Below, one piece after another: positions 1-22,086 of a DNA stretch of 36,394 bases. A program made the position numbers and the translations under genes. The stretch spans positions 1 through 36,394 of the forward strand of contig WHTT01000065.1 of NCBI GenBank assembly GCA_009377605.1, written 5' to 3'. How positions within the stretch are numbered: the first letter of the stretch is position 1; each line of letters starts with the position of its first letter. Origin of the DNA: Luteitalea sp. GTDB lineage: Bacteria > Acidobacteriota > Vicinamibacteria > Vicinamibacterales > Vicinamibacteraceae. Under the pieces are notes generated by a model, which was given only the letters and a program-made list of their open reading frames with translations, did not search any database and was not told where the DNA came from.

Positions 1-533
1 CCCTGCTCCCAGACGAACCATGCCGACGTGACGCTGTCGGTCTGCCCACGCCCCTTGAAGTCGTGCCGAGGCATCACGATCACCGTCCGCGGCGGATTTG
101 CCGACAGGAACCGCTGGCGCGCCGCAGTCGGCTCGAGCCACGACAGCCGGAGGATGGTGGCGAAGCACGGCAGCGTCTGCACGGCCAGCGGCACAATGGC
201 GTCCGCCAGATCGAACGGCACGTTCGTCACACCCCAATACGGGCGGTTATGCGTCCGCCCGGCAATGTCGCGCCAGTACTCCGAGCGCGCGGCATCGAGA
301 TGCGTGTCGGTCGGCGTGGCTGGGTCGAGATCGTTGCTCTCGATGAAGCCCGTCGCGGACGGACGCTCCGCCGCCAGCACCTTGACGATCGCCAACTGCC
401 CCGCGCACGGCTCGAGCACGTCGAACGGATGCACGCGCCGCAGGAGTGCCCGCGTCATCCAGGCCGGCGTCGGGTAGTAGTCGAACGCGCGCCGCACGGA
501 CGGGTCTAGCTCGAGCAGCGGCCGTTGTGTCAT
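1..533 (-). CDS. Phage DNA methyltransferase, 3' end cut by the window edge
   Basis: An open frame of 177 codons starts with ATG at 533 and runs off the left edge. It resembles small phage adenine-type DNA methyltransferases: YYPTP near residues 19-23, a SAM-site-like VLEPCAGQLAIV (residues 39-50), a motif IV-like TNVPFDLA (103-110), and a SAWFVWE tail motif. Two positions deviate from the family as I know it: EPCAGxG is EPCAGQL here, and NPPF/NPPY is NVPF. It may therefore be altered in activity. The start overlaps the HNH stop by 4 bases (ATGA), so translation is coupled. The missing C-terminus is probably the 28-residue fragment at 36308-36394. The likely role is host-mimicking DNA modification; target specificity is unknown. 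Confidence 0.75.
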   Translation of the reverse strand, partial: MTQRPLLELDPSVRRAFDYYPTPAWMTRALLRRVHPFDVLEPCAGQLAIVKVLAAERPSATGFIESNDLDPATPTDTHLDAARSEYWRDIAGRTHNRPYWGVTNVPFDLADAIVPLAVQTLPCFATILRLSWLEPTAARQRFLSANPPRTVIVMPRHDFKGRGQTDSVTSAWFVWEQ

Positions 534-1036
534 GACGCCCGCCGCCCCCCGCGCAGAACCGTGATCGACGTGTTGCGCATGCGCCTGCGGACTTGGGCTT
601 GGGCGTCTGTCAGACGCTTGCACTCGCGGCACCCGCGACCGTTGTCTCGGCGGTACACAGTGGCACCCGTCAATTCGTGGCCACGATCACAATGTGTCTT
701 CCGAGCATTCTTGGCCGGCTGACTGTCTCCGCGTAGCACGTTGATTCTGTTCGTCACCGGCTCTAAGTGCGCCGGATTCACGCACGCACGATTGCGGCAG
801 AGATGATCAATGGTCAGACCGTCTGGGATACGCTCACGCAGCAACTCCCAACTAATGCGGTGTGCCCATGAGGACTTGCACGCAACTCCAAACACGCCGT
901 ATCCGTCCGCGCGACAACGGGTCCATATCCAGCAGCCGCTGGCGTCGTCCTTGGACACATATGACCAGAACCGGCGAACGGCGTCAGGCGTGAGTAGATC
1001 GACGTACGACGGGCGAGTAGACTGGTGATCAGTCAT
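530..1036 (-). CDS. HNH endonuclease
   Basis: 168-residue HNH nuclease. The core reads CWIW (35-38), AHRISWEL, TIDHLCRNRACVNPAHLEPV (75-94; Asp77-His78 and His90 are the expected metal and catalytic residues), followed by a second Cys/His knuckle (Cys116, His120, Cys136, Cys139). This layout is common in phage HNH proteins, both free-standing homing-type nucleases and DNA-processing enzymes. I chose the ATG at 1036 because it overlaps the previous stop by 4 bases (ATGA) like neighbouring genes; an ATG at 1066 would add 10 residues. It lies directly before the methyltransferase, but nothing shows that the two form a restriction-modification pair. Confidence 0.85.
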   Translation of the reverse strand: MTDHQSTRPSYVDLLTPDAVRRFWSYVSKDDASGCWIWTRCRADGYGVFGVACKSSWAHRISWELLRERIPDGLTIDHLCRNRACVNPAHLEPVTNRINVLRGDSQPAKNARKTHCDRGHELTGATVYRRDNGRGCRECKRLTDAQAQVRRRMRNTSITVLRGGRRAS

Positions 1037-1194
1037 GACCGTGCGGACTCTTTCGTCGTCGTCCATCCCGGTGTTTCAGCGTGGCAGCTCGTACACCGCA
1101 ACGCGATCCGCGTCCGGTCGAACGTCAGCACTTGGTCATGCCCGCGCAGTCCACAGATGAAGTGCCGGAGACGATCTACCAGCCTGACGGACAT
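1033..1194 (-). CDS. Small Zn-ribbon protein (53 aa)
   Basis: Basic 53-residue protein with the core FICGLRGH followed by LRCTSCHAETPGW. Short phage proteins with a HDxxL...LRCxxCxxETPGW pattern recur in siphovirus and podovirus early regions, but have no assigned function that I know. The ATG at 1194 is preceded by GGAG on the minus strand at a usable distance. It sits between the two HNH genes in the tightly packed early operon. One CxxC pair plus an upstream Cys/His could hold one zinc; a nucleic-acid or protein-binding accessory role is inference. Confidence 0.7.
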   Translation of the reverse strand: MSVRLVDRLRHFICGLRGHDQVLTFDRTRIALRCTSCHAETPGWTTTKESARS

Positions 1195-1262
1195 GCTCGT
1201 TTTCTCCAATTCCGCTCCACTCGCCACTGCTGATACCGTCGCCAGAGGGAGAGCAGGGTCAT
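1176..1262 (-). CDS. Possible 28-aa microprotein
   Basis: A 28-codon frame rich in Arg and Trp (MTLLSLWRRYQQW at its start). Its ATG overlaps the stop of the upstream gene in an ATGA junction, and its end overlaps the next start. The position fills what would otherwise be a 65-base gap in a very compact operon, which is the main argument for it. It has no recognised domain, and so short a frame can occur by chance in GC-rich DNA. Confidence 0.3.
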   Translation of the reverse strand: MTLLSLWRRYQQWRVERNWRKRACPSGW

Positions 1263-1627
1263 GCGCGCCTCCGGATCTCGACTCGCTGATACCGATCCGT
1301 CCAGTGCGGGCGCTGACCGCCCACCCTGAGCAGCTTCCGCCCGCCGACGCCCCCGGTGATGTCCAAGTGGCACTGATCGCAAACGTGCTGCTTGTGCTCC
1401 TTGAGCGCCGACAGCCCTTTACCGCGCGTCCCTCGGCCGCTGAGCATGTGGTGCACCTGCGTGGCCGCACGATCGCAGCGATACTCGATGGCCCCGGTCG
1501 CCCCGAACCACCGCACCTCGCACCACCCCTCGCTGCGATCCCGCGCCTGCGCGCTCCCGGCCTTATCCGCGCCGGGTGGGGTCGGCGTCTTGGCGAAGGC
1601 GTGATAGGCGCGCTCAGGGTCCGCCAC
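1259..1627 (-). CDS. HNH-like nuclease fold protein (122 aa)
   Basis: 122-residue protein with CEVRWFGATGAI, then YRCDRAATQVHHMLSGRG, then HVCDQCHLDITGG. The HH in a QVHH context followed by CxxCH is typical of the HNH/McrA-type beta-beta-alpha-metal fold, with Cys pairs holding a structural zinc. It is therefore a second, shorter HNH-type protein in the same operon, unrelated in sequence to the one at 530-1036. It is flanked by very small genes and overlaps the 37-residue membrane protein upstream by 14 bases. Whether it is an active nuclease cannot be seen. Confidence 0.7.
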   Translation of the reverse strand: MADPERAYHAFAKTPTPPGADKAGSAQARDRSEGWCEVRWFGATGAIEYRCDRAATQVHHMLSGRGTRGKGLSALKEHKQHVCDQCHLDITGGVGGRKLLRVGGQRPHWTDRYQRVEIRRRA

Positions 1628-1727
1628 GGTCCTCTCCCTTCCACAAATAGAGATCCAGGACCACCAACCCCAGGATCAGCAGGGGCAACCACCACAGCTC
1701 CCGCCACAGGGCCAGCAGGGTGGGCAT
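1614..1727 (-). CDS. Small single-pass membrane protein (37 aa)
   Basis: A 37-codon frame starting directly after the TAG of the upstream gene (TAGATG). It encodes MPTLLALWRELWW, a strongly hydrophobic stretch LPLLILGLVVLDLYLW (about residues 14-29), and a short charged tail KGEDRGGP, giving one predicted membrane helix. It ends inside the next gene (14-base overlap). Small membrane peptides in phage early operons can act on host membrane targets or exclude other phages; here that is inference only. The junction and the composition make it more convincing than chance. Confidence 0.55.
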   Translation of the reverse strand: MPTLLALWRELWWLPLLILGLVVLDLYLWKGEDRGGP

Positions 1728-2015
1728 CTACGCTGCCCTCCGTCGGCGCGCCTGTGCCTCGTCACGCAGCGTGCGCAGCCAGAGTCCGCGCAACCACCGC
1801 GTCACCTTGCCTGTGCCCTCGCACCAGCCACACGGTTCCCACGGGCCAGTGCCGTCATCGAGCAACACGTAGCGTTCGCCACCCGCGCCGCTGCAGGACT
1901 GGCACAGCAGGCCATGCGCCTCGACGTATGCGACGAACCGCCGATGATGCGCCTGCCTCTCATAAGAGAGCCGCGCGTAATCCGGCACGTCGTTGATGTG
2001 ATCGCGCCAGCCCAT
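1728..2015 (-). CDS. DnaJ-type zinc-finger protein (95 aa)
   Basis: 95 residues with two CxxCxGxG-like knuckles, CQSCSGAGG (38-46) and CGWCEGTGK (62-70), the repeat that binds one zinc in the DnaJ Cys-rich domain. The N-terminal third (YARLSYERQAHHRRFVAYVEAHG) is helical and the C-terminus is very basic (DEAQARRRRAA). There is no J domain, so it is not a co-chaperone; stand-alone knuckles of this kind occur in many phage accessory proteins. It follows the 67-residue gene directly and precedes the small membrane protein with no gap. Confidence 0.8.
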   Translation of the reverse strand: MGWRDHINDVPDYARLSYERQAHHRRFVAYVEAHGLLCQSCSGAGGERYVLLDDGTGPWEPCGWCEGTGKVTRWLRGLWLRTLRDEAQARRRRAA

Positions 2016-2219
2016 CTACTTCAGCCTCGACGCCTTGACCATCTGCTGGTCCCGTTCATACGCTGCGGCTTCGCCCCCACGGAAGGCTTCACCGTCAGGC
2101 TCGGGCGGCGAGCACTCTTCGCACCCGCCGTAGCGGACGCCGTACTCGCTCATGGGCAGTTCTTTGCCGTGGCGGAGGCAGTAGCACTTAGGGTCGAGAT
2201 CGTCAAAGTCCTCCGTCAT
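2016..2219 (-). CDS. Small Cys-containing protein (67 aa)
   Basis: 67 residues, acidic at the start (MTEDFDDLDPK), then CYCLRHG and CEECSPPEPDGEAF, giving CxC plus CxxC that could bind one zinc. The ATG overlaps the previous stop by one base (TAATG). No recognised family. It belongs to a run of five consecutive small Cys-rich genes between the exonuclease and the HNH genes. Confidence 0.65.
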   Translation of the reverse strand: MTEDFDDLDPKCYCLRHGKELPMSEYGVRYGGCEECSPPEPDGEAFRGGEAAAYERDQQMVKASRLK

Positions 2220-2401
2220 TACGCGCTCCTCGTGATGGCCGCCAGCGCGGCCTGTCGTGCGCGCCGCTCGAGGCAGTACCAGCAGATGCACTCCGGATCG
2301 CACGGTTCCTGCGGATAGGCGCCGCAGTCGGGGCAGAGTTCGGAATCCGGGTCCGGCCCAAACTCGCGCTCGTCGTCGCCATTGAACCAGGGCGCGTCCA
2401 C
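2219..2401 (-). CDS. Small zinc-ribbon protein (60 aa)
   Basis: 60 residues with an acidic N-terminus (MDAPWFNGDDEREFGPDPDS), then CPDCGAYPQEPCDPECICWYC: CxxCG followed by a closely packed Cys cluster that could hold one or two zincs. The C-terminus is helical and Ala-rich. It starts just after the TAG of the 47-residue gene (2402) and ends in a TAATG junction with the next one. No function is known to me. Confidence 0.7.
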   Translation of the reverse strand: MDAPWFNGDDEREFGPDPDSELCPDCGAYPQEPCDPECICWYCLERRARQAALAAITRSA

Positions 2402-2545
2402 CTACGCCGCCCCCGGAAAGCTCACGACCTGCGGCCGGCGCACCCGATACCGGCCACAGCACCGGCACTGCAGCCCGAGCTTGACCAGCATCCACGAGCG
2501 GTGCGGGCAGCGGCGGGCCAGCGCAAAACGCAGCACGCGGGCCAT
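2402..2545 (-). CDS. Basic Zn-ribbon microprotein (47 aa)
   Basis: 47 residues, strongly basic: ARRCPHRSWMLVKLGLQCRCCGRYR contains CPH and CxCC metal ligands with an aromatic/hydrophobic core between. The ATG at 2545 lies in a TGATG junction with the exonuclease stop, so the two are probably co-translated. A nucleic-acid-binding accessory to the exonuclease is possible but only inferred from position. Confidence 0.65.
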   Translation of the reverse strand: MARVLRFALARRCPHRSWMLVKLGLQCRCCGRYRVRRPQVVSFPGAA

Positions 2546-3231
2546 CACGCCACCTGCTCTGCGGCCACGCCGCGCAACACCCCCATGCGCCGCGCGAGCG
2601 CCAGCGTCACCTCGACATCCGACCGCACATGCGCGCAGACCTCCGCCCACTTCCCCGCCGCGATGAGCGCCGGCACGTCCGCCCCGCTGATCGCGTCGTC
2701 CAGCGGAATCCCGAACCGCTTGGCGTAGAACTTCAGCCCGCGGAACTTGATCGCCCCGTTGAACGACAGGAGCTGCATCAGGTCGATCACGCTCGGATGG
2801 CGGTACTTGTCGATCTGAATGGCCGGCGCCGGCACGCCCAGGTAGAGCGAGCGCCGCAAGAGCACGGGCAGGTCGTACCCGAGAATGTTGTAGCCGACGA
2901 TGGACGTCTGACCCTGCACCTGTCGCCAGACCTCCGCGAGCATCGTGCGCTCCTGCGCCTCGCTGTCAGCCGTTATGACACCAACCTTGCCCGTCTCCGG
3001 GTCCGCGATGCCGACGGCGACGACGCGGGCCAGATCCGGGTCGAGCGCGCACTTGCCGAGCGCGGCCTGCTGCGCCTCCGCGATGTAGGCGGCGATCTTG
3101 GCCGGATCCTTGTAATTGGACGGCGCCTCGATCGGCTCCATGAACTCTGCCGCGCTGTCGATGCCGGTCGCTTCGATGTCCAGCACGCGGTAGCGCGGGT
3201 CGTACTGTTCGGATGCGTAGTTCTGGCTCAT
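2545..3231 (-). CDS. DnaQ-like 3'-5' exonuclease
   Basis: 228-residue RNase H-fold exonuclease of the DEDD superfamily. Motif I is VLDIEATGID (Asp18, Glu20), motif II IVGYNILGYDLPVL (Asn115, Asp120), motif III HVRSDVEVT (Asp205). The family usually has Tyr four residues before the last Asp (DEDDy); here it is His201, which leaves a slightly unusual ligand set. The similarity is to proofreading-type exonucleases (the PolB-exo2-like family), but no polymerase lies in the window. With the SSB-like gene just upstream it probably forms a small recombination or repair module. The early operon position fits replication-stage expression. Confidence 0.85.
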   Translation of the reverse strand: MSQNYASEQYDPRYRVLDIEATGIDSAAEFMEPIEAPSNYKDPAKIAAYIAEAQQAALGKCALDPDLARVVAVGIADPETGKVGVITADSEAQERTMLAEVWRQVQGQTSIVGYNILGYDLPVLLRRSLYLGVPAPAIQIDKYRHPSVIDLMQLLSFNGAIKFRGLKFYAKRFGIPLDDAISGADVPALIAAGKWAEVCAHVRSDVEVTLALARRMGVLRGVAAEQVA

Positions 3232-3244
3232 GGCGTCCTTCCGA

Positions 3245-3631
3245 TCAGAACGGAATTGACTCGTCGTCCATCGCGGCGGCGTACTCCGGTTCCGGCTGCG
3301 GCTTCGGATGCGCGGGGAGCTTAGCCGGTGCCTTCACGCGGATGGCCTCCACCGTCTCGCCCTGGAAATCCACTTCCGTGGCGAATAGCCGGACCTGCAC
3401 ACCGTGCCAGTCGTCGGTGTCGTGGCTGCCGGCGATCTCCGCGATCTTTTTGGAGTTGGTCTTGTTCAGGACCATCCCCTTCTGCTTGCCGGCGAAGTAG
3501 ACGACCGGCTTCATCTCCTTGCTGCGGCCGACCGGCTCCAGCTCCACGCGATCGATGGCGACGACCGGCTGCGCCTCGCCGAGATCGGAAGCCTTCAGGT
3601 AGTTGCTGGGGAATGCGTCGTTGATGTTCAC
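3245..3631 (-). CDS. SSB-like phage protein (128 aa)
   Basis: The N-terminus MNINDAFPSNYLKASDL, followed by a beta-rich body (VVAIDRVELEPVG, PVVYFAGKQKGMVLNKTN, DTDDWHGVQVRLFATEV, VEAIRVKAP), matches a widespread phage family that I know only as hypothetical. The body ends in a Pro-rich linker and an acidic tip, DDESIPF, which closely resembles the C-terminal tip (DDDIPF) of bacterial SSB. I infer an OB-fold ssDNA-binding protein whose tip recruits partner proteins. Its downstream partner in the operon is the DEDD exonuclease, 13 bases away. Start chosen at the ATG at 3631. Confidence 0.7.
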   Translation of the reverse strand: MNINDAFPSNYLKASDLGEAQPVVAIDRVELEPVGRSKEMKPVVYFAGKQKGMVLNKTNSKKIAEIAGSHDTDDWHGVQVRLFATEVDFQGETVEAIRVKAPAKLPAHPKPQPEPEYAAAMDDESIPF

Positions 3632-3640
3632 GGTCTGCTC

Positions 3641-3886
3641 CTAGCGGCCCTCCGGCCAGATGATGTTGAGCGCGAGCGCCGACAGGTGCAGATAGTGGTT
3701 CTGCTCGATGTCGGTCAGCTCCGGCCACGTCTTGAAGTCGCCGGTCAATTTGCCCGTCCTCAGACGGCGCACATTGAACAACCAGGTGGCGAGCATCTGG
3801 TCCGCGATCTGCTGCCGGAAATCCACGTCCGGCATGTGCTGGTAGTTCACTTCCGCGTGGTTGGGTGCCATACTCTCTTCGGGCAT
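3641..3886 (-). CDS. Hypothetical early protein (81 aa)
   Basis: 81 residues, well-formed and Trp/Leu-containing (QQIADQMLATWLFNVRRL, LHLSALALNIIWPEGR at the end), probably all-helical. A good ribosome site (GAGGAGG about 7 bases before the ATG at 3886) supports the start. It precedes the SSB-like gene by 9 bases. Not recognised. The 84 bases upstream (3887-3970) hold only that ribosome site; I see no promoter or hairpin there. Confidence 0.65.
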   Translation of the reverse strand: MPEESMAPNHAEVNYQHMPDVDFRQQIADQMLATWLFNVRRLRTGKLTGDFKTWPELTDIEQNHYLHLSALALNIIWPEGR

Positions 3887-3970
3887 CAGCGGTCCTCCTC
3901 GTGTGTGTCGCTGGTGGTCCTGGGGGCGGCAGGAGATAGGCCTGCTTGCCCCAACTTCTCTCTCTCGTCC

Positions 3971-4225
3971 TTACGTCTCCTGCAGCACGGCTTCGAGGCG
4001 AGCACCGGACTCCACCTCACACAACTGCTCGGCCTGTTCCGCACACGCGATTAACTGCGCGGCGATCTGCCGTGCCTGCGCCGCGGCTGCTCGCGCGCCT
4101 CCAGAGAGATAGAAAACCGCGTCGACGCCACCCGCCTCTTGACTGAGCCAGATAAGGCCATCGCGGTGCTGCACGACGGGCATGGCGTGGTGAAACGAAA
4201 TCTGCTGCCGTAATTGAGTGCTCAC
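3971..4225 (-). CDS. Hypothetical early protein (84 aa)
   Basis: 84 residues: a short beta-like start (ISFHHAMPVVQHRDGLIWLSQEAGG) followed by a long Ala/Gln-rich amphipathic helix (ARAAAAQARQIAAQLIACA). The ATG overlaps the last base of the HTH gene upstream (4225). Not recognised; the helix could mediate oligomerisation. Confidence 0.6.
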   Translation of the reverse strand: MSTQLRQQISFHHAMPVVQHRDGLIWLSQEAGGVDAVFYLSGGARAAAAQARQIAAQLIACAEQAEQLCEVESGARLEAVLQET

Positions 4226-4680
4226 TAGCTCACCTTCCTTTCACGCGACTGCGTCAGTTCTGCCTTGAGCGGCGGCCCCGCCTTGGCCGGCAGCGTCGAC
4301 GCCTTCAGCGCATCGAACACACCGAGTAAGCCCGCAACGAAATGCCGCACCGCGTCATCCCCACGAGACGGCATCACGACGATCCGCCCGCGCTCCGTCG
4401 CCTCGCGACTGTGGTATTCCGCCTTGACGTCCTCAGGTAGCGCGTCGAAGAACTCCAGGCCGAGCGGCTTCTCCCCGTTCAAGACCCGCGAGATGTAGGC
4501 CCTGTAGTCCTCGGATTTCCCCATCGCGACGGCGAGCGCTTCCAGCGTCCAGCCGAGATCGGAGACGCACTGCCGGACCAATTCGCGGCGCTGGTCAACA
4601 GCTGTTGTCCTCACGACCGAGACGCGAACATCAGAAGTTGCCTGACGACGCGCGGGGCTGTCTGCGACGATGCTTGACAT
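4225..4680 (-). CDS. Helix-turn-helix protein (151 aa)
   Basis: The central region LGWTLEALAVAMGKSEDY followed by ISRVLNGEKPLGLEFFDALP has the spacing of a Cro/XRE-like HTH; phage proteins with this RVLNGEKPL...LPxDV pattern are common and usually annotated only as DNA-binding. The C-terminal half (GDDAVRHFVAGLLGVFDAL) is helical and may dimerise. I start at the ATG at 4680; the frame stays open to 4773, but that extension would run through the preceding gene. A possible regulator of early-to-late switching or replication, by inference from position. Confidence 0.65.
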   Translation of the reverse strand: MSSIVADSPARRQATSDVRVSVVRTTAVDQRRELVRQCVSDLGWTLEALAVAMGKSEDYRAYISRVLNGEKPLGLEFFDALPEDVKAEYHSREATERGRIVVMPSRGDDAVRHFVAGLLGVFDALKASTLPAKAGPPLKAELTQSRERKVS

Positions 4681-4684
4681 GCAG

Positions 4685-4924
4685 TTAAGGCTTCCCTTCC
4701 CACCGCTGCCCACCGAGCAGCATCCGTGCGACCGCCGCGCCAAACTTGGCGGCGTGCCCGTCGTGCCGGCCATCCAACACCGCCGCTTTCAGGTTGGCGA
4801 TCTCCAGCGTGAGATCGTCAGCCCCTGCCTCACCTGTTCGGTTGATCAGCTTTTGGCTGCTGTTCAGGCTGTCGTGGCCGCCAAGCGGGAGCGCGTCAGG
4901 GCCGAGCGTGCGATCAGAAGTCAT
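4685..4924 (-). CDS. Hypothetical early protein (79 aa)
   Basis: 79 residues. The second half (DDLTLEIANLKAAVLDG...AKFGAAVARMLLGGQRWEG) looks like one long amphipathic helix. The ATG at 4924 overlaps the end of the winged-helix gene by 11 bases. No motif recognised; it may be a small partner of one of the flanking DNA-binding proteins. Confidence 0.55.
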   Translation of the reverse strand: MTSDRTLGPDALPLGGHDSLNSSQKLINRTGEAGADDLTLEIANLKAAVLDGRHDGHAAKFGAAVARMLLGGQRWEGKP

Positions 4925-5225
4925 GGGTAGCCTCCTGCTGGCTGGCGACGTACACCGCGCACGCCTCACGGCGCTCGTCGGTCTTCCTGATGTCGCCACG
5001 CAGTTCCAAGGCGTTGAAGCGCGCCGCGACCGATGCGCGGGCGATCGTCAGGCTCGCGCTCGCTTCCTTCTGCGTGCACCCGTGGTTCCCGGTCCAGCGG
5101 ATGAAATGCAGCACCGCCTCGCCTTGCTTGCCGACGAAGCGCGCGGCACCGACCGCCGCATCACGGCTCGTGGCGCTGCCGCTCTGAAAGGGCAATTCCT
5201 GATTCGCGGAATCGAGCCACGGCAT
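4914..5225 (-). CDS. Winged-helix DNA-binding protein (103 aa)
   Basis: TSRDAAVGAARFVGKQGEAV, then CTQKEASASLTIARASVAAR, then ALELRGDIRKTDERREA, follow the pattern of a small phage family with an N-terminal SRxAA segment and a winged helix: the HTH is QKEASASLTIARASVAARF (about 52-70) and the wing is LRGDIRKTDERR. Such proteins often sit beside exonuclease or recombination genes, as here. Start taken at the ATG at 5225, two bases after the upstream stop; a longer frame reaches 5273 but overlaps the Zn-finger gene. Probably a sequence-specific early regulator. Confidence 0.7.
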   Translation of the reverse strand: MPWLDSANQELPFQSGSATSRDAAVGAARFVGKQGEAVLHFIRWTGNHGCTQKEASASLTIARASVAARFNALELRGDIRKTDERREACAVYVASQQEATHDF

Positions 5226-5227
5226 GG

Positions 5228-5413
5228 CTACGCCGCCTTCCCGCGCTTGGCCGCGCGCATCGGCCGCTCCCACTCACGGCGGCAGTCGTCGCAGATGCCG
5301 TGTGAGAGTCCACGCGCATCGAGCGGTCGATCCACGAGTACCTGTTGTGGCCGGCCATTCGCCACGCACCACGCGCAGAGCGTGCGGATGGGGTCGGCGT
5401 GCATGTCGTTCAT
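5228..5413 (-). CDS. Small zinc-finger protein (61 aa)
   Basis: 61 residues with CAWC (13-16) and CDDCRREWE (41-49), separated by a short beta hairpin (PQQVLVDRPL): a classic two-knuckle zinc ribbon with a basic tail (RAAKRGKAA). This CxWC...LSHGICxxC arrangement also occurs in signalling proteins with Zn ribbons. The start at 5413 makes an ATGA overlap with the secreted-protein gene. Function unknown. Confidence 0.65.
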   Translation of the reverse strand: MNDMHADPIRTLCAWCVANGRPQQVLVDRPLDARGLSHGICDDCRREWERPMRAAKRGKAA

Positions 5414-5988
5414 CGGCAGTACCCAGGCTGTTTCCACGCCACGGGTTCAGGCTGACCGAACAGCCACGCACCGTCGTGCCGGAGCACGAAGACTTTCGTC
5501 ATGGCCCGGTCACTATCCGGGTCGTTCCCGTTCCGAATATGCACGGTCACTTCTCCGCTCAGATCACGCGGATTACATCGTGCCCGTTCGTCCTGCTTCC
5601 CTTGAATCAGCACCATTTCTTCCTGCACGCCATCCGGTCGGAGACGCCCAAAGGACAGCGCACCCAGGGACCCCCCGGCGATGGACGCCATCCGCACCTT
5701 GGGCGGATCGTCCACCGTGGAAATGATGGAGACTTCGTTGTTCGTGATCTCGACGTAGCCCCAGGCCAACGGGATGATGCGCGTCTGCGCCTCGGCACCA
5801 GCCGCTGAGGCGAGAATCAGCAGTGCGCTGACGACCGGCGCGAACAGAAGTGAATTGTGGTAGGAATACGGACGTGCGCGAGGACGTGCGCGCCCGAGCC
5901 TTACGGCACGCGACCTAATCTGCCCAACTTGGCGTTCTGCCAAGCCAGACACGATCGTTGAAGATACATTATGTAAACCTTTGCGCAT
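5410..5988 (-). CDS. Exported protein with signal peptide, start uncertain
   Basis: The mature part begins after a hydrophobic segment, SLLFAPVVSALLILASAAGAEAQ, whose AxA-type end looks like a signal-peptidase cut site. A roughly 125-residue beta-rich domain follows (VEITNNEVSIISTVDD, GEVTVHIRNGND, KVFVLRHDGAWLFG). Frames begin at 6030 or 5988, which put about 46-60 very basic residues before the hydrophobic core; that is long for a signal peptide, so a non-ATG start nearer 5860 is possible. The frame crosses a 12-base tandem repeat (about 5870-5892). Directly downstream of the Cro-like gene, it could act in the envelope (exclusion, conversion). Not recognised. Confidence 0.5.
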   Translation of the reverse strand: MRKGLHNVSSTIVSGLAERQVGQIRSRAVRLGRARPRARPYSYHNSLLFAPVVSALLILASAAGAEAQTRIIPLAWGYVEITNNEVSIISTVDDPPKVRMASIAGGSLGALSFGRLRPDGVQEEMVLIQGKQDERARCNPRDLSGEVTVHIRNGNDPDSDRAMTKVFVLRHDGAWLFGQPEPVAWKQPGYCR

Positions 5989-6004
5989 GGTCGTTTGCAC
6001 CTTG

Positions 6005-6256
6005 TTAAGACGCGCGTGTTCGACTATCACGAGGCATGGTCACGGCAGATTCGTCAAGATCGTTTGCCGTCCACGCCTCAACGGGAATCCCCGTCAGGCG
6101 CTCAAGGTGAATCGCGTTCTTGAGTCCCGGCGATCGCGCGCCACTCAGGAGTTGTGAGATGAACGGCTGATCGTATTCGAGATACCTGGCCGCATCGGCT
6201 TGGTTGAAACCACGACGCCGTAACCAATCCTTGAATTGTTCTGGCCCTGAGTGCAT
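6005..6256 (-). CDS. Cro-like HTH regulator
   Basis: 83 residues. The HTH is FKDWLRRRGFNQADAARYL, followed by the recognition helix region QPFISQLLSGARSPGLK and then AIHLERLTGIPVEAW, typical of XRE/Cro repressors. It is the first gene of the leftward early operon and faces the larger CI-like gene across 109 bases, the classic temperate switch layout. A perfect inverted repeat overlaps its start codon (6253-6266). No clear Shine-Dalgarno is visible. It probably represses the repressor promoter and tunes early transcription. Confidence 0.85.
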   Translation of the reverse strand: MHSGPEQFKDWLRRRGFNQADAARYLEYDQPFISQLLSGARSPGLKNAIHLERLTGIPVEAWTANDLDESAVTMPRDSRTRAS

Positions 6257-6266
6257 GGACCCATGC
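6253..6266. promoter_or_regulatory. Inverted repeat over the Cro-like start codon
   Basis: GCATGG-AC-CCATGC is a perfect 6-base inverted repeat with a 2-base centre, and it includes the start codon of the Cro-like gene. It could be an operator half-site pair or could affect translation initiation. Only one copy was noticed. Confidence 0.35.
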
Positions 6267-6365
6267 TACGCGCGTTTAGCAAAAAGGCAATAGTAAACCG
6301 ACATACAAGTTACTCATAGGTGTCTGATTTGCCATGTGCTCTCGTGATAGGTCTATTAAAGGCGT
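6257..6365. promoter_or_regulatory. Divergent switch region between cro-like and cI-like genes
   Basis: 109 AT-richer bases between two divergent HTH genes, where the operators should lie. Visible elements: an imperfect 25-base dyad bounded by GACA and TGTC (6300-6324), two related words GGCAAT (6286-6291) and TTGCCA (6329-6334) in inverse orientation, and a -10-like TACTAT for the leftward promoter (complement of 6290-6295) with no convincing -35. The dyad matches at only 6 of 12 positions per half, so I do not claim it as the operator. Confidence 0.5.
6329..6357 (+). promoter_or_regulatory. Candidate promoter of the repressor gene
   Basis: TTGCCA (6329-6334), 17 bases, then TCTATT (6352-6357). 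Transcription should begin around 6364, only a few bases before the ATG at 6366, so the message would be leaderless or nearly so, as for lambda cI made from pRM. AAAGG lies only 3 bases before the ATG, too close for a normal ribosome site. Confidence 0.45.
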
Positions 6366-6938
6366 ATGAAGGCTAGTTATCTCCTGAAGCGCAATATCCG
6401 TACGCTGCTCTCTGCGCGGGGGCAAACGGCGCACGACTTGGCAGTTTGGTGCCGCAAAACCGATCCGTGGGTGAGCAAGATCCTGAGCGACAAGCCGCCG
6501 CCTCCAGGTGAGAAGGAGCGGGGCATCCCGCTCAAGTACCTGGATCGCATTGCCGACTTCTTCGGCATCGCCACCTACCAGCTCTTTCAGCCGGGGATTT
6601 CGCCGTTGACGGAACGGCGGGGCGGAAAGGATCGACGCGGCGGGCGGGACCGGCGGATCAGCGGCCGCCAGCAGGAGATCGTCGCGACCCCGATCCGCGC
6701 CCTGACGCTAACCGCAGATGACGAGGCGATGCTCGCGGAGTTGCACGCGCTGAGCTACGAGCAGTATCAGCATGTGAAGGCGTGGATCGCCGTCGCGCGC
6801 TTCGGGCCGCACAGCGAGCGAAATAGAACACCTCCCGACGCGCCGCTACTGGCAGCGCCGCCACCATCGAGGCAAGCGCCGCGCACTCGCGCTGTACGGC
6901 CACAGACGCCGCGCGCCGCGAAACGCATGGAGCCGTAG
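6366..6938 (+). CDS. CI-like repressor without peptidase domain
   Basis: 190 residues. The N-terminus carries an XRE-type HTH (LLKRNIRTLLSARGQTAHDL, AVWCRKTDPWVSKILSD, then IPLKYLDRIADFFGI). A highly basic linker follows, ERRGGKDRRGGRDRR (about 84-98), then a helical segment (LTADDEAMLAELHALSYEQ...VKAWIAVARF) and a Pro/Arg-rich tail. There is no LexA/CI-type Ser-Lys peptidase domain, so RecA-stimulated self-cleavage is not expected; induction must work another way. It faces the Cro-like gene and heads the rightward lysogeny block that ends at 7883. Confidence 0.8.
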   Translation: MKASYLLKRNIRTLLSARGQTAHDLAVWCRKTDPWVSKILSDKPPPPGEKERGIPLKYLDRIADFFGIATYQLFQPGISPLTERRGGKDRRGGRDRRISGRQQEIVATPIRALTLTADDEAMLAELHALSYEQYQHVKAWIAVARFGPHSERNRTPPDAPLLAAPPPSRQAPRTRAVRPQTPRAAKRMEP

Positions 6939-7096
6939 CTGTCTCAGTACACATGGAAACATAGCGCATGGTGTGACCCCTTGGGGAAGTTACAGGGAAC
7001 AGATGGATGAGCAGTCAGACACAGCCGGTCTCGTGCCAGTCACCACATCCGTAATGTAACGCCCGCTGCTGCATTCAGTTGCACACTCTCGTGACG

Positions 7097-7114
7097 GATC
7101 GGGTAGGTCCGATC
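7097..7114 (+). repeat. Short hairpin downstream of the repressor gene
   Basis: GATCGG-GTAGGT-CCGATC forms a 6-base stem in the 243-base space between the repressor and the 94-residue gene. It has no following T tract. Apart from an unconvincing 18-codon frame at 7003-7059, I see nothing else in 6939-7181. Confidence 0.3.
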
Positions 7115-7181
7115 ACGCTTCTGTGCCGTATCCGGCCTCGACGGTATAGCCTGCCCGGCTGAGCTGTGGTAGCGTGCCGGC

Positions 7182-7466
7182 ATGGCGACCATTGACACTT
7201 GGCTCCAGGATTATTGGTGCCTCTCAGGCCCACGCGGCTTGGTCCGCTGTGAACTCTGGAGCACCTGGCACGGTCTGGAGATGCGCATCTATATCGGGGG
7301 TGCCAGTCGCGGCGCAGAATACATCGAACGGTCCCCCGATCACGATCTGCTGGCGCTGACGACCTGGGCGGATCACCAGCGGGCGCGCTTCCGCGCGATG
7401 GGGTATGTACCCACTACGGTCCCTGACCGCCCGCGTGGCATGACCGCGATCAGTGAGGCCCGCTGA
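7182..7466 (+). CDS. Hypothetical protein of the lysogeny block (94 aa)
   Basis: 94 residues, Trp-rich: MATIDTWLQDYWCLSGPRGL, then LWSTWHGLEMRIYIGG and LLALTTWADHQRARFRAMG. The look is of a small globular alpha/beta protein with no signal peptide or membrane segment. It is the second gene in the rightward block, so it is probably expressed in the lysogen; superinfection immunity or host fitness are the usual roles of such genes, but nothing in the sequence decides. Its stop codon lies inside a 20-base repeat that recurs at 7919. No good ribosome site is visible. Confidence 0.6.
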   Translation: MATIDTWLQDYWCLSGPRGLVRCELWSTWHGLEMRIYIGGASRGAEYIERSPDHDLLALTTWADHQRARFRAMGYVPTTVPDRPRGMTAISEAR

Positions 7467-7475
7467 TCGGCTCCC
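7456..7475 (+). repeat. 20-base direct repeat, copy 1
   Basis: AGGCCCGCTGATCGGCTCCC, identical to 7919-7938. This copy includes the TGA stop of the 94-residue gene and can also pair locally (CGATCAG 7447-7453 with CTGATCG 7463-7469). Confidence 0.85.
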
Positions 7476-7587
7476 GCGCGTGTCGCTCCTGACCTACAGG
7501 ATACGGTTGCGGTGTGCTGAGCTGATGTAGGATCGCCGAACGCGCTGCGCTCAGGGCTACCAAACGCTTCATCTCGTGCCTCCAGGC

Positions 7588-7628
7588 GAACGGAACACCG
7601 TTCTCCGCGCGACGGAAACCGTCCGTCG
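7588..7628 (+). promoter_or_regulatory. Tandem hairpins before the 47-aa gene
   Basis: GAACGG-AACA-CCGTTC (7588-7603) is a perfect stem with a tetraloop. It is followed by GACGG-AAA-CCGTC (7611-7623), which can instead pair as CGACGG (7610-7615) with CCGTCG (7623-7628). The ribosome site AGGAGG begins at 7632. Mutually exclusive stems just before a ribosome site suggest attenuation or translational control; no ligand or leader peptide is evident. Confidence 0.4.
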
Positions 7629-7646
7629 GCTAGGAGGTGAGTGTGG

Positions 7647-7790
7647 ATGGATAACCCTGATAAGGACGTCCCTGCGGGCTACCACGTCATTTACGTGAAG
7701 TGGATCACCCGCAAGGGCGTTCGCGTTTACCCGCCGAGGGGACTGAAGGCTTGGAGGCTTGTGGTCCCTGAAACGCGGTCGAGCAGCTAA
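7647..7790 (+). CDS. Small basic protein of the lysogeny block (47 aa)
   Basis: 47 residues: MDNPDKDVPAGYHVIYVKW, then ITRKGVRVYPPRGLKAWRLV and a short tail. It has the strict beta-strand and basic pattern of a folded small domain. Start set by an excellent AGGAGG (7632-7637) nine bases before the ATG at 7647; an in-frame GTG at 7641 lies too close. It is the last gene of the rightward block, followed by the strong terminator at 7844. A DNA- or RNA-binding role is possible from its basic character. Confidence 0.7.
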   Translation: MDNPDKDVPAGYHVIYVKWITRKGVRVYPPRGLKAWRLVVPETRSSS

Positions 7791-7843
7791 CAGCGAATAC
7801 TAGCCTCTTTTTACTGAAAAGTACAGAGAAAGCTAGGGCGAAC

Positions 7844-7883
7844 CGGCCGGGGCGTCACCGTGGCGCTCCGGCCGTTAGTTTTT
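7844..7883 (+). terminator. Rho-independent terminator of the lysogeny block
   Basis: The CGGCCGG (7844-7850) / CCGGCCG (7868-7874) stem is extended by a G-T pair and GCG/CGC, followed by TTAGTTTTT. The T tract lies only on the rightward side, so it ends transcripts from the repressor block and protects against reading into the lysis genes. Confidence 0.85.
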
Positions 7884-7918
7884 ATCGGCTCGGCCAAACT
7901 GACCCACTACCGGAACAT

Positions 7919-7938
7919 AGGCCCGCTGATCGGCTCCC
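7919..7938 (+). repeat. 20-base direct repeat, copy 2
   Basis: Identical to 7456-7475. Here it forms the left arm of the long hairpin at 7920-7992, with its first 12 paired bases mirrored at 7981-7992. Confidence 0.85.
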
Positions 7939-7992
7939 TCTTCGCGTAGGGGTGGTGAATGCGAAGAGGCCCTGCGGAGCGATCAGCGGGCC
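7920..7992. terminator. Long three-part stem-loop at the end of the late operon
   Basis: Arms 7920-7931 and 7981-7992 pair perfectly (12 bp). A 1-base bulge is followed by GCTCC/GGAGC (7933-7937 with 7976-7980) and CTCTTCGC/GCGAAGAG (7938-7945 with 7961-7968), with a 7-base bulge on one side and a 15-base loop: 25 bp of stem in all. It starts 4 bases after the stop of the last leftward gene, so a late-operon terminator or 3' end stabiliser is the natural reading. Neither side has a T tract, so it is not a standard rho-independent terminator. Confidence 0.6.
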
Positions 7993-7996
7993 GTCT

Positions 7997-8146
7997 CTAG
8001 CGCGGGTGGACGATCACGCCATCCTTGATCAGCACGGCCGTTGAACACGTCCGGCAGTAGCACCAGATGGCGCCTTTGTCGTCCGCGCGGATGGCTTCGA
8101 GCGAGGAAGCCGAATCACAGCATGGGCAATCTGGAAGCTCTTTCAC
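7997..8146 (-). CDS. Zinc-ribbon microprotein (49 aa, GTG start)
   Basis: 49 residues: MKELPDCPCCDSASSLEAIR at the start and WCYCRTCSTAVLIKDG near the end, giving two paired knuckles (CPCC and CRTC), a standard zinc ribbon. The GTG start overlaps the previous stop (GTGA), as for its neighbours. It is the last gene of the late and lysis operon. Role unknown; it is not an expected part of a lysis set. Confidence 0.7.
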   Translation of the reverse strand: MKELPDCPCCDSASSLEAIRADDKGAIWCYCRTCSTAVLIKDGVIVHPR

Positions 8147-8415
8147 CGCTGCGGCACAACGTGCACCGGCTGATTCGTCAGCAACCGGATCACGATGTTG
8201 CCCACCCCCACGACCGTGGCGGCCACGCCGGGCGGCAGCGGCAGCACGCCGGAGAGTTCCACGGCGGCGGTGACCACGTTGAACCAGAATGTTTTCGAAG
8301 AGAGAAGACTCTTAGACACGCGCTGTTCCTTTTCATAAGAGGCTGTCCCCTGCTCAAGCAGAGAAAACAGCCGGTTGGCTTTCACGAAGATTTTCAGGAG
8401 GCGGATCGGATTCAC
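8143..8415 (-). CDS. Holin-like membrane protein (90 aa, GTG start)
   Basis: 90 residues. After a basic amphipathic N-terminus (NPIRLLKIFVKANRLFSLL) and a polar linker comes SKTFWFNVVTAAVELSGVLP and then a second hydrophobic stretch, GVAATVVGVGNIVIRLL, ending in TNQPV. The SKTFW...RLLTxxPV pattern is known from phage holin-like proteins. One or two membrane helices (about 43-60 and 63-79) fit a pore-former that times endolysin release. The GTG start gives a GTGA overlap with the gene before. The lysozyme is two genes upstream. Confidence 0.65.
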   Translation of the reverse strand: MNPIRLLKIFVKANRLFSLLEQGTASYEKEQRVSKSLLSSKTFWFNVVTAAVELSGVLPLPPGVAATVVGVGNIVIRLLTNQPVHVVPQR

Positions 8416-8606
8416 GGCATGTTCTCCAGCCAGTGGTCGACATCCACCCGCACCCGTGGCGCGTTGAACGGCATCAGGTCCGACTCCCGGACCAGCACCG
8501 TCCACCCCTGCGCCAGCGCACGGGCTTCGCAGTCCACGGGGATCCGCATCGTGATCGGGGTCTCGGGATTCTCGCCCCAACTGACGAAGAGGAAGCGTGG
8601 CGCCAT
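8412..8606 (-). CDS. Hypothetical protein in the lysis block (64 aa)
   Basis: 64 residues, MAPRFLFVSWGENPETPITM and then ALAQGWTVLVRESDLMPF, looking like a small alpha/beta cytoplasmic protein without membrane segments. It sits between the lysozyme and the holin-like gene; its start lies one base after the lysozyme stop and its end overlaps the next GTG. No recognised family. Confidence 0.6.
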   Translation of the reverse strand: MAPRFLFVSWGENPETPITMRIPVDCEARALAQGWTVLVRESDLMPFNAPRVRVDVDHWLENMP

Positions 8607-8607
8607 C

Positions 8608-9039
8608 TCATGCCGCCTGTCCCGTCCGGAGCATCGCCACCAGCCGCGTCACCCGGGAGCGTTGGACCTGCGTGGCCCAGTCGCTATCGACCATCTGCGC
8701 GGCCGCCTCCCCGTAGTCGCCAGCCTCCAGCGCCGTCAGCATCTTGCGGAAGCCCCGGAAGCGGCTCGGCCCCAGGTTGAAGCGCAGATCGAGCAGCGCT
8801 CGCTGGCGGATCGAATCGAGCTTCGAAAACCACGCGAAGTGGTCTGCGAGATCCGCTTCGCACTCGTCGATGTCTTCCGTGACCAGCAGGGTGATCGCGG
8901 CGTCCGACAGGTCCCGGTCTTCGAGGTTCCGCCCGATACCCACGGTGAGCTTGCCAGCGGTGCAGCGGTATGGACGGCGCTTCAGCCCTTCATGGAGCAC
9001 CAGCTGCGAGACCAGCGCATCACGTTCCTGTAGCGTCAC
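8608..9039 (-). CDS. Endolysin, T4-type lysozyme (GH24)
   Basis: 143 residues, a muramidase cutting the MurNAc-GlcNAc bond of peptidoglycan. LVLHEGLKRRPYRCTAGKLT gives the E-x8-(D/C)-x5-T catalytic arrangement: Glu17, Cys26, Thr32. Cys replaces the usual Asp, a substitution known to be tolerated in this family. VGIGRNL, ALLDLRFNLG and FRKMLTALEAGDYGEAA are further family landmarks. There is no signal peptide or SAR helix, so it needs the holin for release. The GTG start at 9039 overlaps the previous stop (GTGA). Confidence 0.9.
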   Translation of the reverse strand: MTLQERDALVSQLVLHEGLKRRPYRCTAGKLTVGIGRNLEDRDLSDAAITLLVTEDIDECEADLADHFAWFSKLDSIRQRALLDLRFNLGPSRFRGFRKMLTALEAGDYGEAAAQMVDSDWATQVQRSRVTRLVAMLRTGQAA

Positions 9040-9212
9040 GCCGCCCCCAGCAGCGCCCGCAGCGCCTGCGCATGCGTCAACATCCGGCCGAGATCCGTCC
9101 GCACCTGTCGCCAGTCCGGCTGGACCATGAGGTCTGGATCGATGTGCCGGGCGATCAGTTCCTCGATGCGTGCCACCGAGGCGAGCGCGATCACGCGGTG
9201 CATGGGGGTCAC
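9036..9212 (-). CDS. Hypothetical protein in the lysis block (58 aa, GTG start)
   Basis: 58 residues, mostly helical: RVIALASVARIEELIARHID, then a Trp-containing turn and RTDLGRMLTHAQALRALLG. A GTG at 9212 gives the GTGA overlap seen throughout this block; an ATG at 9203 is the alternative. Not recognised. Its place before the lysozyme suggests a lysis accessory or simply a late small gene. Confidence 0.55.
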   Translation of the reverse strand: MTPMHRVIALASVARIEELIARHIDPDLMVQPDWRQVRTDLGRMLTHAQALRALLGAA

Positions 9213-9394
9213 TGGTCCCCGCGCGACAAGAAGAGCACTTGATCGATCTTTTGCCTGATGTACCTGATGTCGTCCTTCACGTCGCGGATCTCGCGGTCGT
9301 GGCCGTTCAGCCGGCCGTGGAGCGAGAACAGCCAGCCCAGTGCGCCGACCCCGATGGCCACGATGGCCATGACCGCTGCTGCCTGTTCAATCAC
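9209..9394 (-). CDS. Membrane-anchored coiled-coil protein of the lysis block (61 aa)
   Basis: 61 residues with a membrane helix at about 5-24 (AAAVMAIVAIGVGALGWLFS) followed by a charged heptad-like segment (RLNGHDREIRDVKDDIRYIR) and a short tail. Such helix-plus-coil proteins next to endolysins are often accessory holins or spanin-like components; no lipobox is visible. GTG start at 9394, with GGGAGA six bases upstream. It is the first gene of the lysis block; the rightward promoter at 9386 lies over its 5' end. Confidence 0.6.
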   Translation of the reverse strand: MIEQAAAVMAIVAIGVGALGWLFSLHGRLNGHDREIRDVKDDIRYIRQKIDQVLFLSRGDQ

Positions 9395-9414
9395 CTGGTC
9401 TCCCGTGGTATTCT
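9386..9414 (+). promoter_or_regulatory. Candidate sigma-70 promoter of the rightward moron cassette
   Basis: TTCAAT (9386-9391), 17 bases, then TATTCT (9409-9414) preceded by TGG, an extended -10. Transcription should start near 9421. It points against the late operon and lies within the start of a lysis gene, so the two transcription units collide. Confidence 0.5.
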
Positions 9415-9423
9415 TCGCCCTTC

Positions 9424-9501
9424 ATGGCCGTCCCGGTCTTCGTACTCCTGGCTGCCGCGGGCCCGTTCCTGGTGCTTCCCTGCTGTGCCCCCCGCGACTG
9501 A
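9424..9501 (+). CDS. Possible hydrophobic leader peptide (25 aa)
   Basis: A 25-codon frame from an ATG three bases downstream of the predicted transcript start: MAVPVFVLLAAAGPFLVLPC then CAPRD. It is nearly all hydrophobic with a terminal Cys pair. It overlaps the GTG start of the methyltransferase by 17 bases in another frame, so it could be a coupled leader or a membrane peptide. No ribosome site, hence leaderless if translated. Confidence 0.3.
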   Translation: MAVPVFVLLAAAGPFLVLPCCAPRD

Positions 9502-10261
9502 CCCGTCCATCCGTCCTGACGCCTGTCCGGCCTGCGCGGCCATCAGCGTGACCACCGCGCCGGACTGGCCATTAGCCGGTCGCCTGGTCGCGTATCGCTG
9601 CGACTCATGCGACCTGCTGTTCTCGTGGCCACAGCCCACGCCTGAGCACCTCGCCGACTTCTACAGTCCGACCGGCGGATGGGGACAGACGCATGCCGAC
9701 CGATTCGAGGCCGCGACACACAAAACCAAGGGCGCGGCCGGCCGCGCGCTGATCGCACGCATCGACGCCCTCGTGCCAGACACCGCTCGGCGCGTGCTCG
9801 ACTTCGGCTGCGGCACCGGCCGCTGGCTGAATGCCTTTGCTGATGCGGGGTGGCAGACGTGGGGCATCGAGCCCGCCACCGATGTGGCCTTTGCGCGGCA
9901 CGCCCGCGTGGACGCGATTCCCGATGACGGCCGCTTCGAATGCGTCCTCGCCTACCATGTGCTTGAGCATCTGCCCCGGCCGCTGGACGCGCTCCGGCAG
10001 TTCGCTGCCGCGCTGCGGCCTGGTGGCGTGTGCGTCGTCAGCGTGCCGCGACTTGACACCGTGGACGTCCATCAGGACCGTACCTATTGCCTGAATGGGC
10101 GCGCCCATCTGGTGGCGTACTCCGAAGCCTGTCTCCGCGATCTGTTTCAGCGTGCCGGCTTCACCCGCGTGATCGACGCGCACGACCTGGACGGGTTGTT
10201 CACTCAGGGGCGCCCAGTACGGATGCGCCTGATCGCGCAGCGCGAGGGCCATCGTGCGTGA
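9485..10261 (+). CDS. Zn-ribbon class I SAM methyltransferase
   Basis: 258 residues from a GTG at 9485. CPAC (14-17) and YRCDSCDLLFSWPQPTP (CxxC at 39-42) form an N-terminal zinc ribbon, then DFYSP. Next come SAM motif I VLDFGCGTGRWL (104-115), an acidic residue ending strand 2 (GIEP, Glu129), and AYHVLEHLPRPLDAL with LRPGGVCVVSVPR. The same architecture occurs in bacterial small-molecule or sugar methyltransferases (Methyltransf_23-like), not in DNA methylases, since there is no NPPY. It is oriented against the late operon, has its own promoter and terminator, and so looks like a moron expressed in the lysogen. Substrate unknown; surface or secondary-metabolite modification is only a guess. 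The exact start is uncertain. Confidence 0.8.
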   Translation: MPPATDPSIRPDACPACAAISVTTAPDWPLAGRLVAYRCDSCDLLFSWPQPTPEHLADFYSPTGGWGQTHADRFEAATHKTKGAAGRALIARIDALVPDTARRVLDFGCGTGRWLNAFADAGWQTWGIEPATDVAFARHARVDAIPDDGRFECVLAYHVLEHLPRPLDALRQFAAALRPGGVCVVSVPRLDTVDVHQDRTYCLNGRAHLVAYSEACLRDLFQRAGFTRVIDAHDLDGLFTQGRPVRMRLIAQREGHRA

Positions 10262-10265
10262 TTGG

Positions 10266-10297
10266 CAGATGGCGCTGATCGTCATCTGATTTCTATT
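10266..10297 (+). terminator. Terminator after the moron methyltransferase
   Basis: CAGATGGCG-CTGAT-CGTCATCTG gives a 9-bp stem with one G-T pair, followed by the T-rich ATTTCTATT. It begins 5 bases after the methyltransferase stop. Confidence 0.6.
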
Positions 10298-10403
10298 AGC
10301 CACGGCGTTTATCTGGCCAATGAACTTGCAGTGGATATGAGCCTGACTTGCTGTTGCGCCAATACTCCGCCATCCTTGACTCCCGTGTTACCCTTGGCCT
10401 GTG

Positions 10404-10550
10404 ATGCCGCTGGCCGAACTGATTGCCGACGTGCGCGAGATGACACTTTTTGAACTCCTTGAAGCCGCCGTCGCTTATGGTGTCGCCGCACTCATAAGCG
10501 CCTTGGTGTTCGGGGCCGTGCTGTTCGGCATGTGGTCATTCCTGCGCTAG
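10404..10550 (+). CDS. Small membrane protein (48 aa)
   Basis: 48 residues: an acidic amphipathic N-terminus (MPLAELIADVREMTLFELLE), then AAVAYGVAALISALVFGAVL and FGMWSFLR, one clear membrane helix with a basic end. It is separate from the methyltransferase (its own frame after the terminator); TTGACT lies at 10377-10382 but no good -10 follows. The end overlaps the convergent late gene by 15 bases. It could be an exclusion or conversion protein of the cassette. Confidence 0.55.
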   Translation: MPLAELIADVREMTLFELLEAAVAYGVAALISALVFGAVLFGMWSFLR

Positions 10551-13620: not shown

Positions 13621-13651
13621 CTTCCCAAGCCCACTCCAGAATCCCGTATAG

Positions 13652-13957: not shown

Positions 13958-13966
13958 GTCGTCTCC

Positions 13967-14887: not shown

Positions 14888-14899
14888 GTCTTCGCGCTC

Positions 14900-21975: not shown

Positions 21976-21991
21976 CCCCGCTCCTGCCCAA

Positions 21992-22086
21992 CCGTCCGAC
22001 CGTGCGCGCCGTCTGATGCTGGGGTGCGCGGTGTGGGTGGACACACCGGACCGCACCAGCGGGCAACGACGCGCACGACCGGACGG
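21992..22086 (-). promoter_or_regulatory. Large nested stem-loop after the 227-aa gene
   Basis: Outer arms 21992-22008 and 22070-22086 pair over 17 bp, with two positions that are A-C mismatches as rightward RNA but G-U pairs as leftward RNA. Inside are GCTGG/CCAGC (22018-22022 with 22056-22060), TGCG/CGCA (22025-22028 with 22052-22055) and GGTGTG/CACACC (22030-22035 with 22042-22047). The structure begins directly after the stop codon at 22087 and has no T tract, so RNA stabilisation or processing is as likely as termination. Confidence 0.7.

What the first reader, a model, noticed from the sequence alone, without database searches (positions are those of the whole stretch)
1..533. The two window edges look like one methyltransferase gene split by opening a circular map
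The left-edge gene ends in SAWFVWEQ and the right-edge fragment begins YVGPEGYVWRLV. Together they give the usual end of phage DNA methyltransferases and a plausible length (about 206 residues). The join also turns the two leftward gene blocks (6256 to 1 and 36394 to 33578) into one early operon with the same overlap style. A strict join is one base short, so a base was lost or trimmed, or the reading is wrong. If right, the genome is about 36.4 kb and complete.
Basis: partly seen in the sequence, partly recalled or inferred. Interest (0 to 1): 0.75.

Follow-up and report, generated by a model that had tools for sequence, protein, structure and literature searches.

The report
Circular phage map cut inside gene
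The two ends of this contig are very probably the two halves of one DNA methyltransferase gene, so the contig is an essentially complete, undescribed phage genome of about 36.4 kb whose circular map was cut at a single missing base; this is useful bookkeeping rather than new biology.

Summary
The window is a whole contig of a 382-contig draft genome. Its left edge is a phage DNA methyltransferase (phrog_799) that runs off the contig. The right edge holds 28 codons that stop in an ATGA overlap with the next gene. With one missing base the join gives a 206-residue protein and scores best of three frames, raising phrog_799 from 92.8 to 99.2 bits. The tail fit alone is weak: 2245 of 57744 control tails score as well. 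The stronger evidence is one related IMG/VR phage, G101 (42,240 bp): 15 of 16 shared genes keep one circular order; G101 is continuous across the window's break, and the window across G101's. The other relatives do not test this. The ends share no overlap and I found no other contig of the genome that continues them. A simulation shows that one unresolved two-allele site in a circular genome gives this geometry: length N-1, no overlap, one base lost. The lost base would be the wobble position of a GGN glycine codon. Reads across the join were not available.

The parts
3..533 (-). DNA (adenine-type) methyltransferase, first 177 codons; positions 2-1 are the first two bases (GG) of codon 178
   Evidence: phrog_799 'DNA methyltransferase', 4.7e-26 in the longer reading 3-632, profile columns 208-365 of 458; 5.4e-26 for the 177 residues; aligned with 15 phage homologues
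36308..36394 (-). probable C-terminal tail of the same methyltransferase: 28 codons and TGA; its stop overlaps the ATG of the next gene (ATGA)
   Evidence: translation; one-base-gap join scores best; ATGA preceded by GGAGGA
530..1066 (-). HNH endonuclease; its TGA overlaps the methyltransferase ATG (ATGA)
   Evidence: PF13392 1.9e-11, phrog_826 2.6e-49; overlap
35463..36311 (-). next gene after the methyltransferase, function not assigned; start inferred
   Evidence: ORF; no Pfam or PHROG match at 0.001 for the longer reading of the frame; start placed from the GGAGGA-ATG context
2545..3231 (-). 3'-5' exonuclease (DNA_pol_B_exo2), early-side synteny anchor
   Evidence: PF10108 5.6e-16; 50% identical in G101
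6005..6256 (-). helix-turn-helix regulator, first gene of the leftward block
   Evidence: HTH_3 3.5e-6; homologue in G101, 9.9e-13
8608..9039 (-). phage lysozyme (endolysin), start uncertain; anchor at G101's own ends
   Evidence: PF00959 7.8e-11 in the stop-to-stop reading 8611-9276; 43% in G101, where a copy lies at each end of the record
29070..30623 (-). terminase large subunit, late-side anchor
   Evidence: PF03237 9.2e-7; phrog_979 7.1e-36; 39% in G101
23622..24602 (-). major capsid protein (podovirus type)
   Evidence: phrog_9953 2.6e-46; NF033394 3.1e-64, 217 bits against a cut-off of 80; 65% in G101
1..36394 (.). whole contig: a phage genome as a circular map opened inside the methyltransferase gene
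   Evidence: contig bounds; circular gene order with G101

Best explanation
The contig is the complete genome map of an uncultivated tailed phage with a podovirus-type capsid protein, about 36,395 bp, circular as assembled (in the particle the DNA is presumably linear and permuted or concatemer-derived; recalled, not tested). The map was opened inside an N6-adenine-type DNA methyltransferase gene. The ends abut with one base missing, the third base of a GGN glycine codon. The likeliest cause (about 0.5 by itself) is a single two-allele site that the assembler's graph left as an unresolved bubble: the main path then starts just after the site and ends just before it, and the short side branches fall below the contig length limit. 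Shown: the two reading-frame halves, the frame and tail fit, the reciprocal gene order with one relative, the absence of end overlap, and the graph geometry in simulation. Inferred: that reads cross the join, that exactly one base is missing, and that a polymorphism is the reason. The confidence given is for the circular map with the two gene halves joined, not for the cause.
For: The window equals the whole contig. Methyltransferase match stops at profile column 365 of 458. One-base-gap join 25.8 bits, against 21.6 (no gap) and 21.9 (two bases); control mean 22.8. Among gaps of 1, 4... 25 bases one base scores best, 24.6, next 22.2. phrog_799 rises from 92.8 to 99.2 bits, strict join 94.0. 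ATGA overlap at both ends of the joined gene. G101: 16 shared anchors at E below 1e-6 on the minus strands, 15 in one circular order; its exonuclease (31.1 kb) and terminase (19.3 kb) lie on one unbroken record although the window's ends fall between them, while its own ends lie at the lysozyme that the window carries inside. G101's ends repeat each other at 94-96% over about 0.6 kb. Simulation: main unitig 36394 of 36395, no overlap, at k of 21, 31, 55 and 99.
Against: No terminal overlap, whereas the CheckV paper (PMC8116208, passages seen) says that assemblers appear to leave an end repeat of k-mer length on circular templates. The tail fit alone is weak: 2245 of 57744 control tails (3.9%) reach it, and longer gaps were tested with residues that cannot score. 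None of 8 related viral records shows the methyltransferase (0 of 6; 0 of 2), though most are fragments. An exact junction search found 0 in viral contigs and 0 in the own genome. Gene order rests on G101 alone: G106 holds 13.6 kb upstream of its terminase without a credible match to the window's early genes (one match at 0.003 to a shadow ORF), and G104 carries a tail-spike end upstream of its terminase, where the window has the spike downstream, so order is not fixed in this group. G101 has 11.8 kb between exonuclease and terminase where the window would have 8.2 kb, leaving room for a missing piece. G101's end repeat is imperfect and may be a tandem copy.
Confidence: 0.85

Rival explanations
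1. The phage map is circular, but more than one base (up to a few kilobases) is missing at the break, and the right-edge fragment is the end of another gene.
For: Exonuclease-to-terminase distance is 11.8 kb in G101 against 8.2 kb here; the tail fit is reached by 3.9% of control tails.
Against: The one-base gap scores best of the nine lengths tested (with the caveat that unknown residues cannot score), and the frame agrees with the ATGA overlap.
Confidence: 0.1
2. The contig is a linear fragment (of a longer phage or an integrated prophage), and the methyltransferase halves match by chance.
For: No end overlap; the contig sits in a bacterial draft genome.
Against: Reciprocal circular order with G101; terminase, capsid, tail spike, lysozyme, regulator and exonuclease are all found; no other contig of the genome matched either end among the candidates scored (40 of 78, 40 of 74; very short overlaps would be missed).
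Confidence: 0.05
3. A rival for the cause only: circular with one base lost by end trimming or a consensus error, not by a polymorphism.
For: The assembler and any trimming step are unknown.
Against: It needs an exact trimming of a k-mer overlap plus one base, whereas a single bubble gives the geometry directly; and the site is a four-fold degenerate codon position, where variation is tolerated (general knowledge).
Confidence: 0.35

Closest known systems
IMGVR_UViG_3300032116_000449 (G101, uncultivated phage, 42,240 bp)
   Same: Capsid protein 65%, terminase 39%, the large protein after it (window 26691-28745) 41%, exonuclease 50%, lysozyme 43% identical; 15 of 16 anchors in the same circular order
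   Different: No methyltransferase match; 11.8 kb instead of 8.2 kb between exonuclease and terminase; record opened beside the lysozyme
phrog_799 phage DNA methyltransferases (for example Listeria phage LMSP-25, Staphylococcus phage vB_SepM_BE08, Salmonella phage PVP-SE1 gp152)
   Same: Same family over the left part; tails of LMSP-25 and BE08 share the WFxW/F-E-x-G-Y-x-G pattern and a Trp at the same distance
   Different: 27-34% identical to nine homologues; motif reads NVPF where 15 of 15 phage homologues read NPPF or NPPY
Bradyrhizobium phage ppBjS10J-1, Myxococcus phages Mx8 and Mx9, Stenotrophomonas phage BUCT555
   Same: Among the 12 phage records with a capsid match, the best-covered named ones (28-31% identity)
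   Different: Too distant to test the junction; only the ppBjS10J-1 annotation was looked at

Membership tests
phrog_799 DNA methyltransferase | Profile match over the catalytic part | tested here: met
   4.7e-26
phrog_799 DNA methyltransferase | Catalytic NPP(F/Y) motif (motif role recalled) | tested here: inconclusive
   Window reads NVPF; 15 of 15 phage homologues read NPPF or NPPY
phrog_799 DNA methyltransferase | C-terminal tail after WFVW(E/D) | tested here: inconclusive
   Fits only if one base is missing; 25.8 bits, a score reached by 2245 of 57744 control tails
Complete viral genome by terminal repeat (CheckV criterion) | Direct terminal repeat of at least 20 bp | tested here: not met
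   No exact end repeat of 6 bases or more; criterion seen in passages of PMC8116208
Complete circularly mapped phage genome | Reads or pairs joining the ends | not testable with these tools
   No reads available
Complete circularly mapped phage genome | Circular permutation against a related genome | tested here: met
   Against one relative, G101: 15 of 16 anchors in one circular order, breaks at different places; G104 and G106 do not confirm it
Caudoviricetes with podovirus-type capsid | Major capsid protein and terminase large subunit | tested here: met
   NF033394 3.1e-64; PF03237 and phrog_979

The most novel reading that the evidence does not exclude
The contig is a complete genome of an undescribed phage lineage, and its break marks a site that varied in the sequenced population: a synonymous polymorphism at the wobble base of a methyltransferase glycine codon. 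Contigs of this shape (ends that complete one gene with one base missing and no overlap) may be a general signature of complete circular genomes that end-repeat tests discard.
Probability: 0.42. Interest if true: 0.35.

Novelty: new member of a known kind. Interest (0 to 1): 0.22.

Why it matters
If right, an unplaced 36.4-kb contig of a draft bacterial genome becomes a complete genome of a phage lineage that I could match closely only to uncultivated fragments. The split-gene, one-base-short pattern would also be a simple test for complete circular genomes that have no terminal repeat. The biology (phage methyltransferase, early operon) is ordinary.

Tried and rejected
Terminase scans found no relative in viral contigs or genome contigs, and a capsid-alignment scan found none in genome contigs. 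Of 100 genomes related to the host, 3 matched the terminase: the window's own and two distant ones. The one other genome of the genus has no methyltransferase match (1 of 2 with its own). The first methyltransferase relative, L002, has a different tail. An exact junction search, 0-30 bases between the ends, found nothing in viral contigs or in the own genome. G107 (7.6 kb) and the other short relatives cover the late module only. G104 and G106 reach upstream of the terminase but give no early anchor there (81 early-side ORFs against 13.6 kb and 5.5 kb, E up to 0.05, two short matches at 0.003 and 0.022 that I take for chance); the second half, G101's early ORFs against the same stretches, did not run. 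The longest-ORF tiling of G101 is unreliable for strand, so I make no claim that its 19-31 kb stretch reads leftward throughout; that script crashed after printing the G101 table. In the anchor count only minus-to-minus matches were kept, and two ORFs nested in stronger anchors (23662-23907 and 28375-28695) were dropped. Control tails were those with no stop in the first 12 codons, and include stretches of the gene itself. Two paper searches were listings; passages of one paper from each listing were seen. I made no search for earlier reports of the one-base-short signature.

Full report
What was checked. The window is contig C65, bases 1-36394, of a 6.79 Mb draft genome in 382 contigs, 97.5% complete; whether that is an isolate or a metagenome bin is not told. 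Both edges are contig ends. On the minus strand the left-edge frame starts at ATG 533 and runs off at base 3 with two bases (GG) to spare, ending SAWFVWEQ. The right edge begins YVGPEGYVWRLVPTGDPSSPLMIIAEDR and stops. The ends share no exact repeat of 6 bases or more.

The methyltransferase. The left part matches phrog_799, DNA methyltransferase, at 4.7e-26, over profile columns 208-365 of 458, so the match stops short of the profile's end. I compared it with 15 genes from named phages and with the 80 loci kept from a scan of viral contigs. After removing duplicates there were 60 distinct tails. They are diverse, but one type reads WFVWE-x-G-Y-x-G-x-P-x-x-x-W-I, as in Listeria phage LMSP-25 and, nearly, Staphylococcus phage vB_SepM_BE08. 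With one missing base the window reads WFVWEQ-G-YVGPEGYVW, which puts Gly, Tyr, Gly and Trp at those positions. The first glycine follows from the join itself, because GGN is Gly whatever N is.

How strong is that? Against a profile of the 60 tails the one-base join scores 25.8 bits, no gap 21.6 and two bases 21.9. Of 57744 control tails from all over the window (each given the same left part and the glycine, no stop in the first 12 codons), 2245 (3.9%) reach 25.8; the control mean is 22.8. So the tail is favourable evidence, not proof. Gaps of 4 to 25 bases score lower than one base (22.2 or less against 24.6), but unknown residues cannot score, so that test leans towards the short gap. phrog_799 gives 92.8 bits without a tail, 94.0 for the strict join and 99.2 for the one-base join. 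The frame that gives this tail also ends in an ATGA overlap with the next gene, preceded by GGAGGA; an ATGA overlap also joins the HNH endonuclease to the start of the methyltransferase.

Gene order in a relative. A capsid protein scan found five uncultivated relatives at 60-68% identity, and an alignment scan two more, at 60% and 58%. One, G101, is 42,240 bp. Comparing ORFs gave 16 anchors at E below 1e-6 on the minus strands of both; 15 of 16 lie in one circular order, the exception being the HNH endonuclease, a mobile type of gene (recalled). In G101, exonuclease (31.1-31.7 kb) and terminase (17.6-19.3 kb) lie on one continuous record; in the window they lie on either side of the break. Conversely G101's own ends lie at a lysozyme gene, of which it has a copy at each end, and which the window carries inside at about 8608-9039 (PF00959). 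G101's end stretches are 94-96% identical over about 0.6 kb, consistent with a circular map with variation, or with a tandem copy there. Two records of one gene order broken at different places is what a circular map predicts.

Limits of that evidence. It rests on one relative. G106 holds 13.6 kb upstream of its terminase with no credible match to the window's early side, and G104 has the end of a tail spike upstream of its terminase, where the window has the spike downstream, so gene order is not fixed in the group. Order alone does not exclude a missing piece: the exonuclease-terminase distance is 11.8 kb in G101 and would be 8.2 kb here.

Other checks. Searches of the own genome with both ends found only the contig itself, among 40 of 78 and 40 of 74 candidates scored, and the junction pattern was absent. 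The junction was not seen elsewhere: none of 8 related viral records shows the methyltransferase (0 of 6; 0 of 2; most are fragments), and no viral contig has the exact join.

Why one base? The CheckV paper (PMC8116208; passages seen) reports that assemblers appear to break circular templates at random and leave a repeat of k-mer length. Here there is none. I simulated a circular random sequence of 36,395 bases with one two-allele site: at k of 21, 31, 55 and 99 the main unitig was 36,394 bases long, began just after the site, ended just before it, and had no end overlap. That is the observed geometry. The missing base would be the third base of a GGN glycine codon, a four-fold degenerate position, where a polymorphism is easily tolerated (general knowledge). 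That diversity within viral populations fragments assemblies is stated in PMC11443906 (passages seen). This cause is inference; trimming or a consensus error is the rival.

What the phage is. Capsid NF033394 (podovirus type, 3.1e-64), terminase, tail spike, endonuclease VII, lysozyme, exonuclease and an HTH regulator. Twelve phage records match the capsid, none above about 31% identity, so the lineage is undescribed by this measure, but of an ordinary kind.

Verdict. Observation confirmed; interpretation supported. Probably a complete, circularly mapped phage genome of about 36.4 kb, opened in a methyltransferase gene with one base missing. Low to modest interest.

Noticed in passing
window 6005-6256 (-) and 6366-6938 (+): Divergent gene pair with an HTH regulator on the left arm, upstream of the whole leftward block; it may be the control region of the phage. 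The right-hand gene has no family match.
   Followed up: partly
window 9170-10261 (+): Rightward SAM-dependent methyltransferase (Methyltransf_23, 1.2e-27) with what looks by eye like a cysteine-rich stretch before the domain; may be a cargo gene among leftward phage genes.
   Followed up: no
window 213-224 (-), methyltransferase residues 104-107: The motif reads NVPF instead of the NPPF or NPPY of 15 of 15 phage homologues; activity may be altered.
   Followed up: partly
G101 (L029 1-581; L031 1618-2240): The relative's two end stretches are 94-96% identical over about 0.6 kb including a lysozyme gene: divergent terminal overlap or a tandem duplication.
   Followed up: partly
L033 (G104) 11265-11645: End of a tail-spike homologue (58% over 127 residues) lies upstream of the terminase, unlike in the window: the spike module seems to move.
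   Followed up: no
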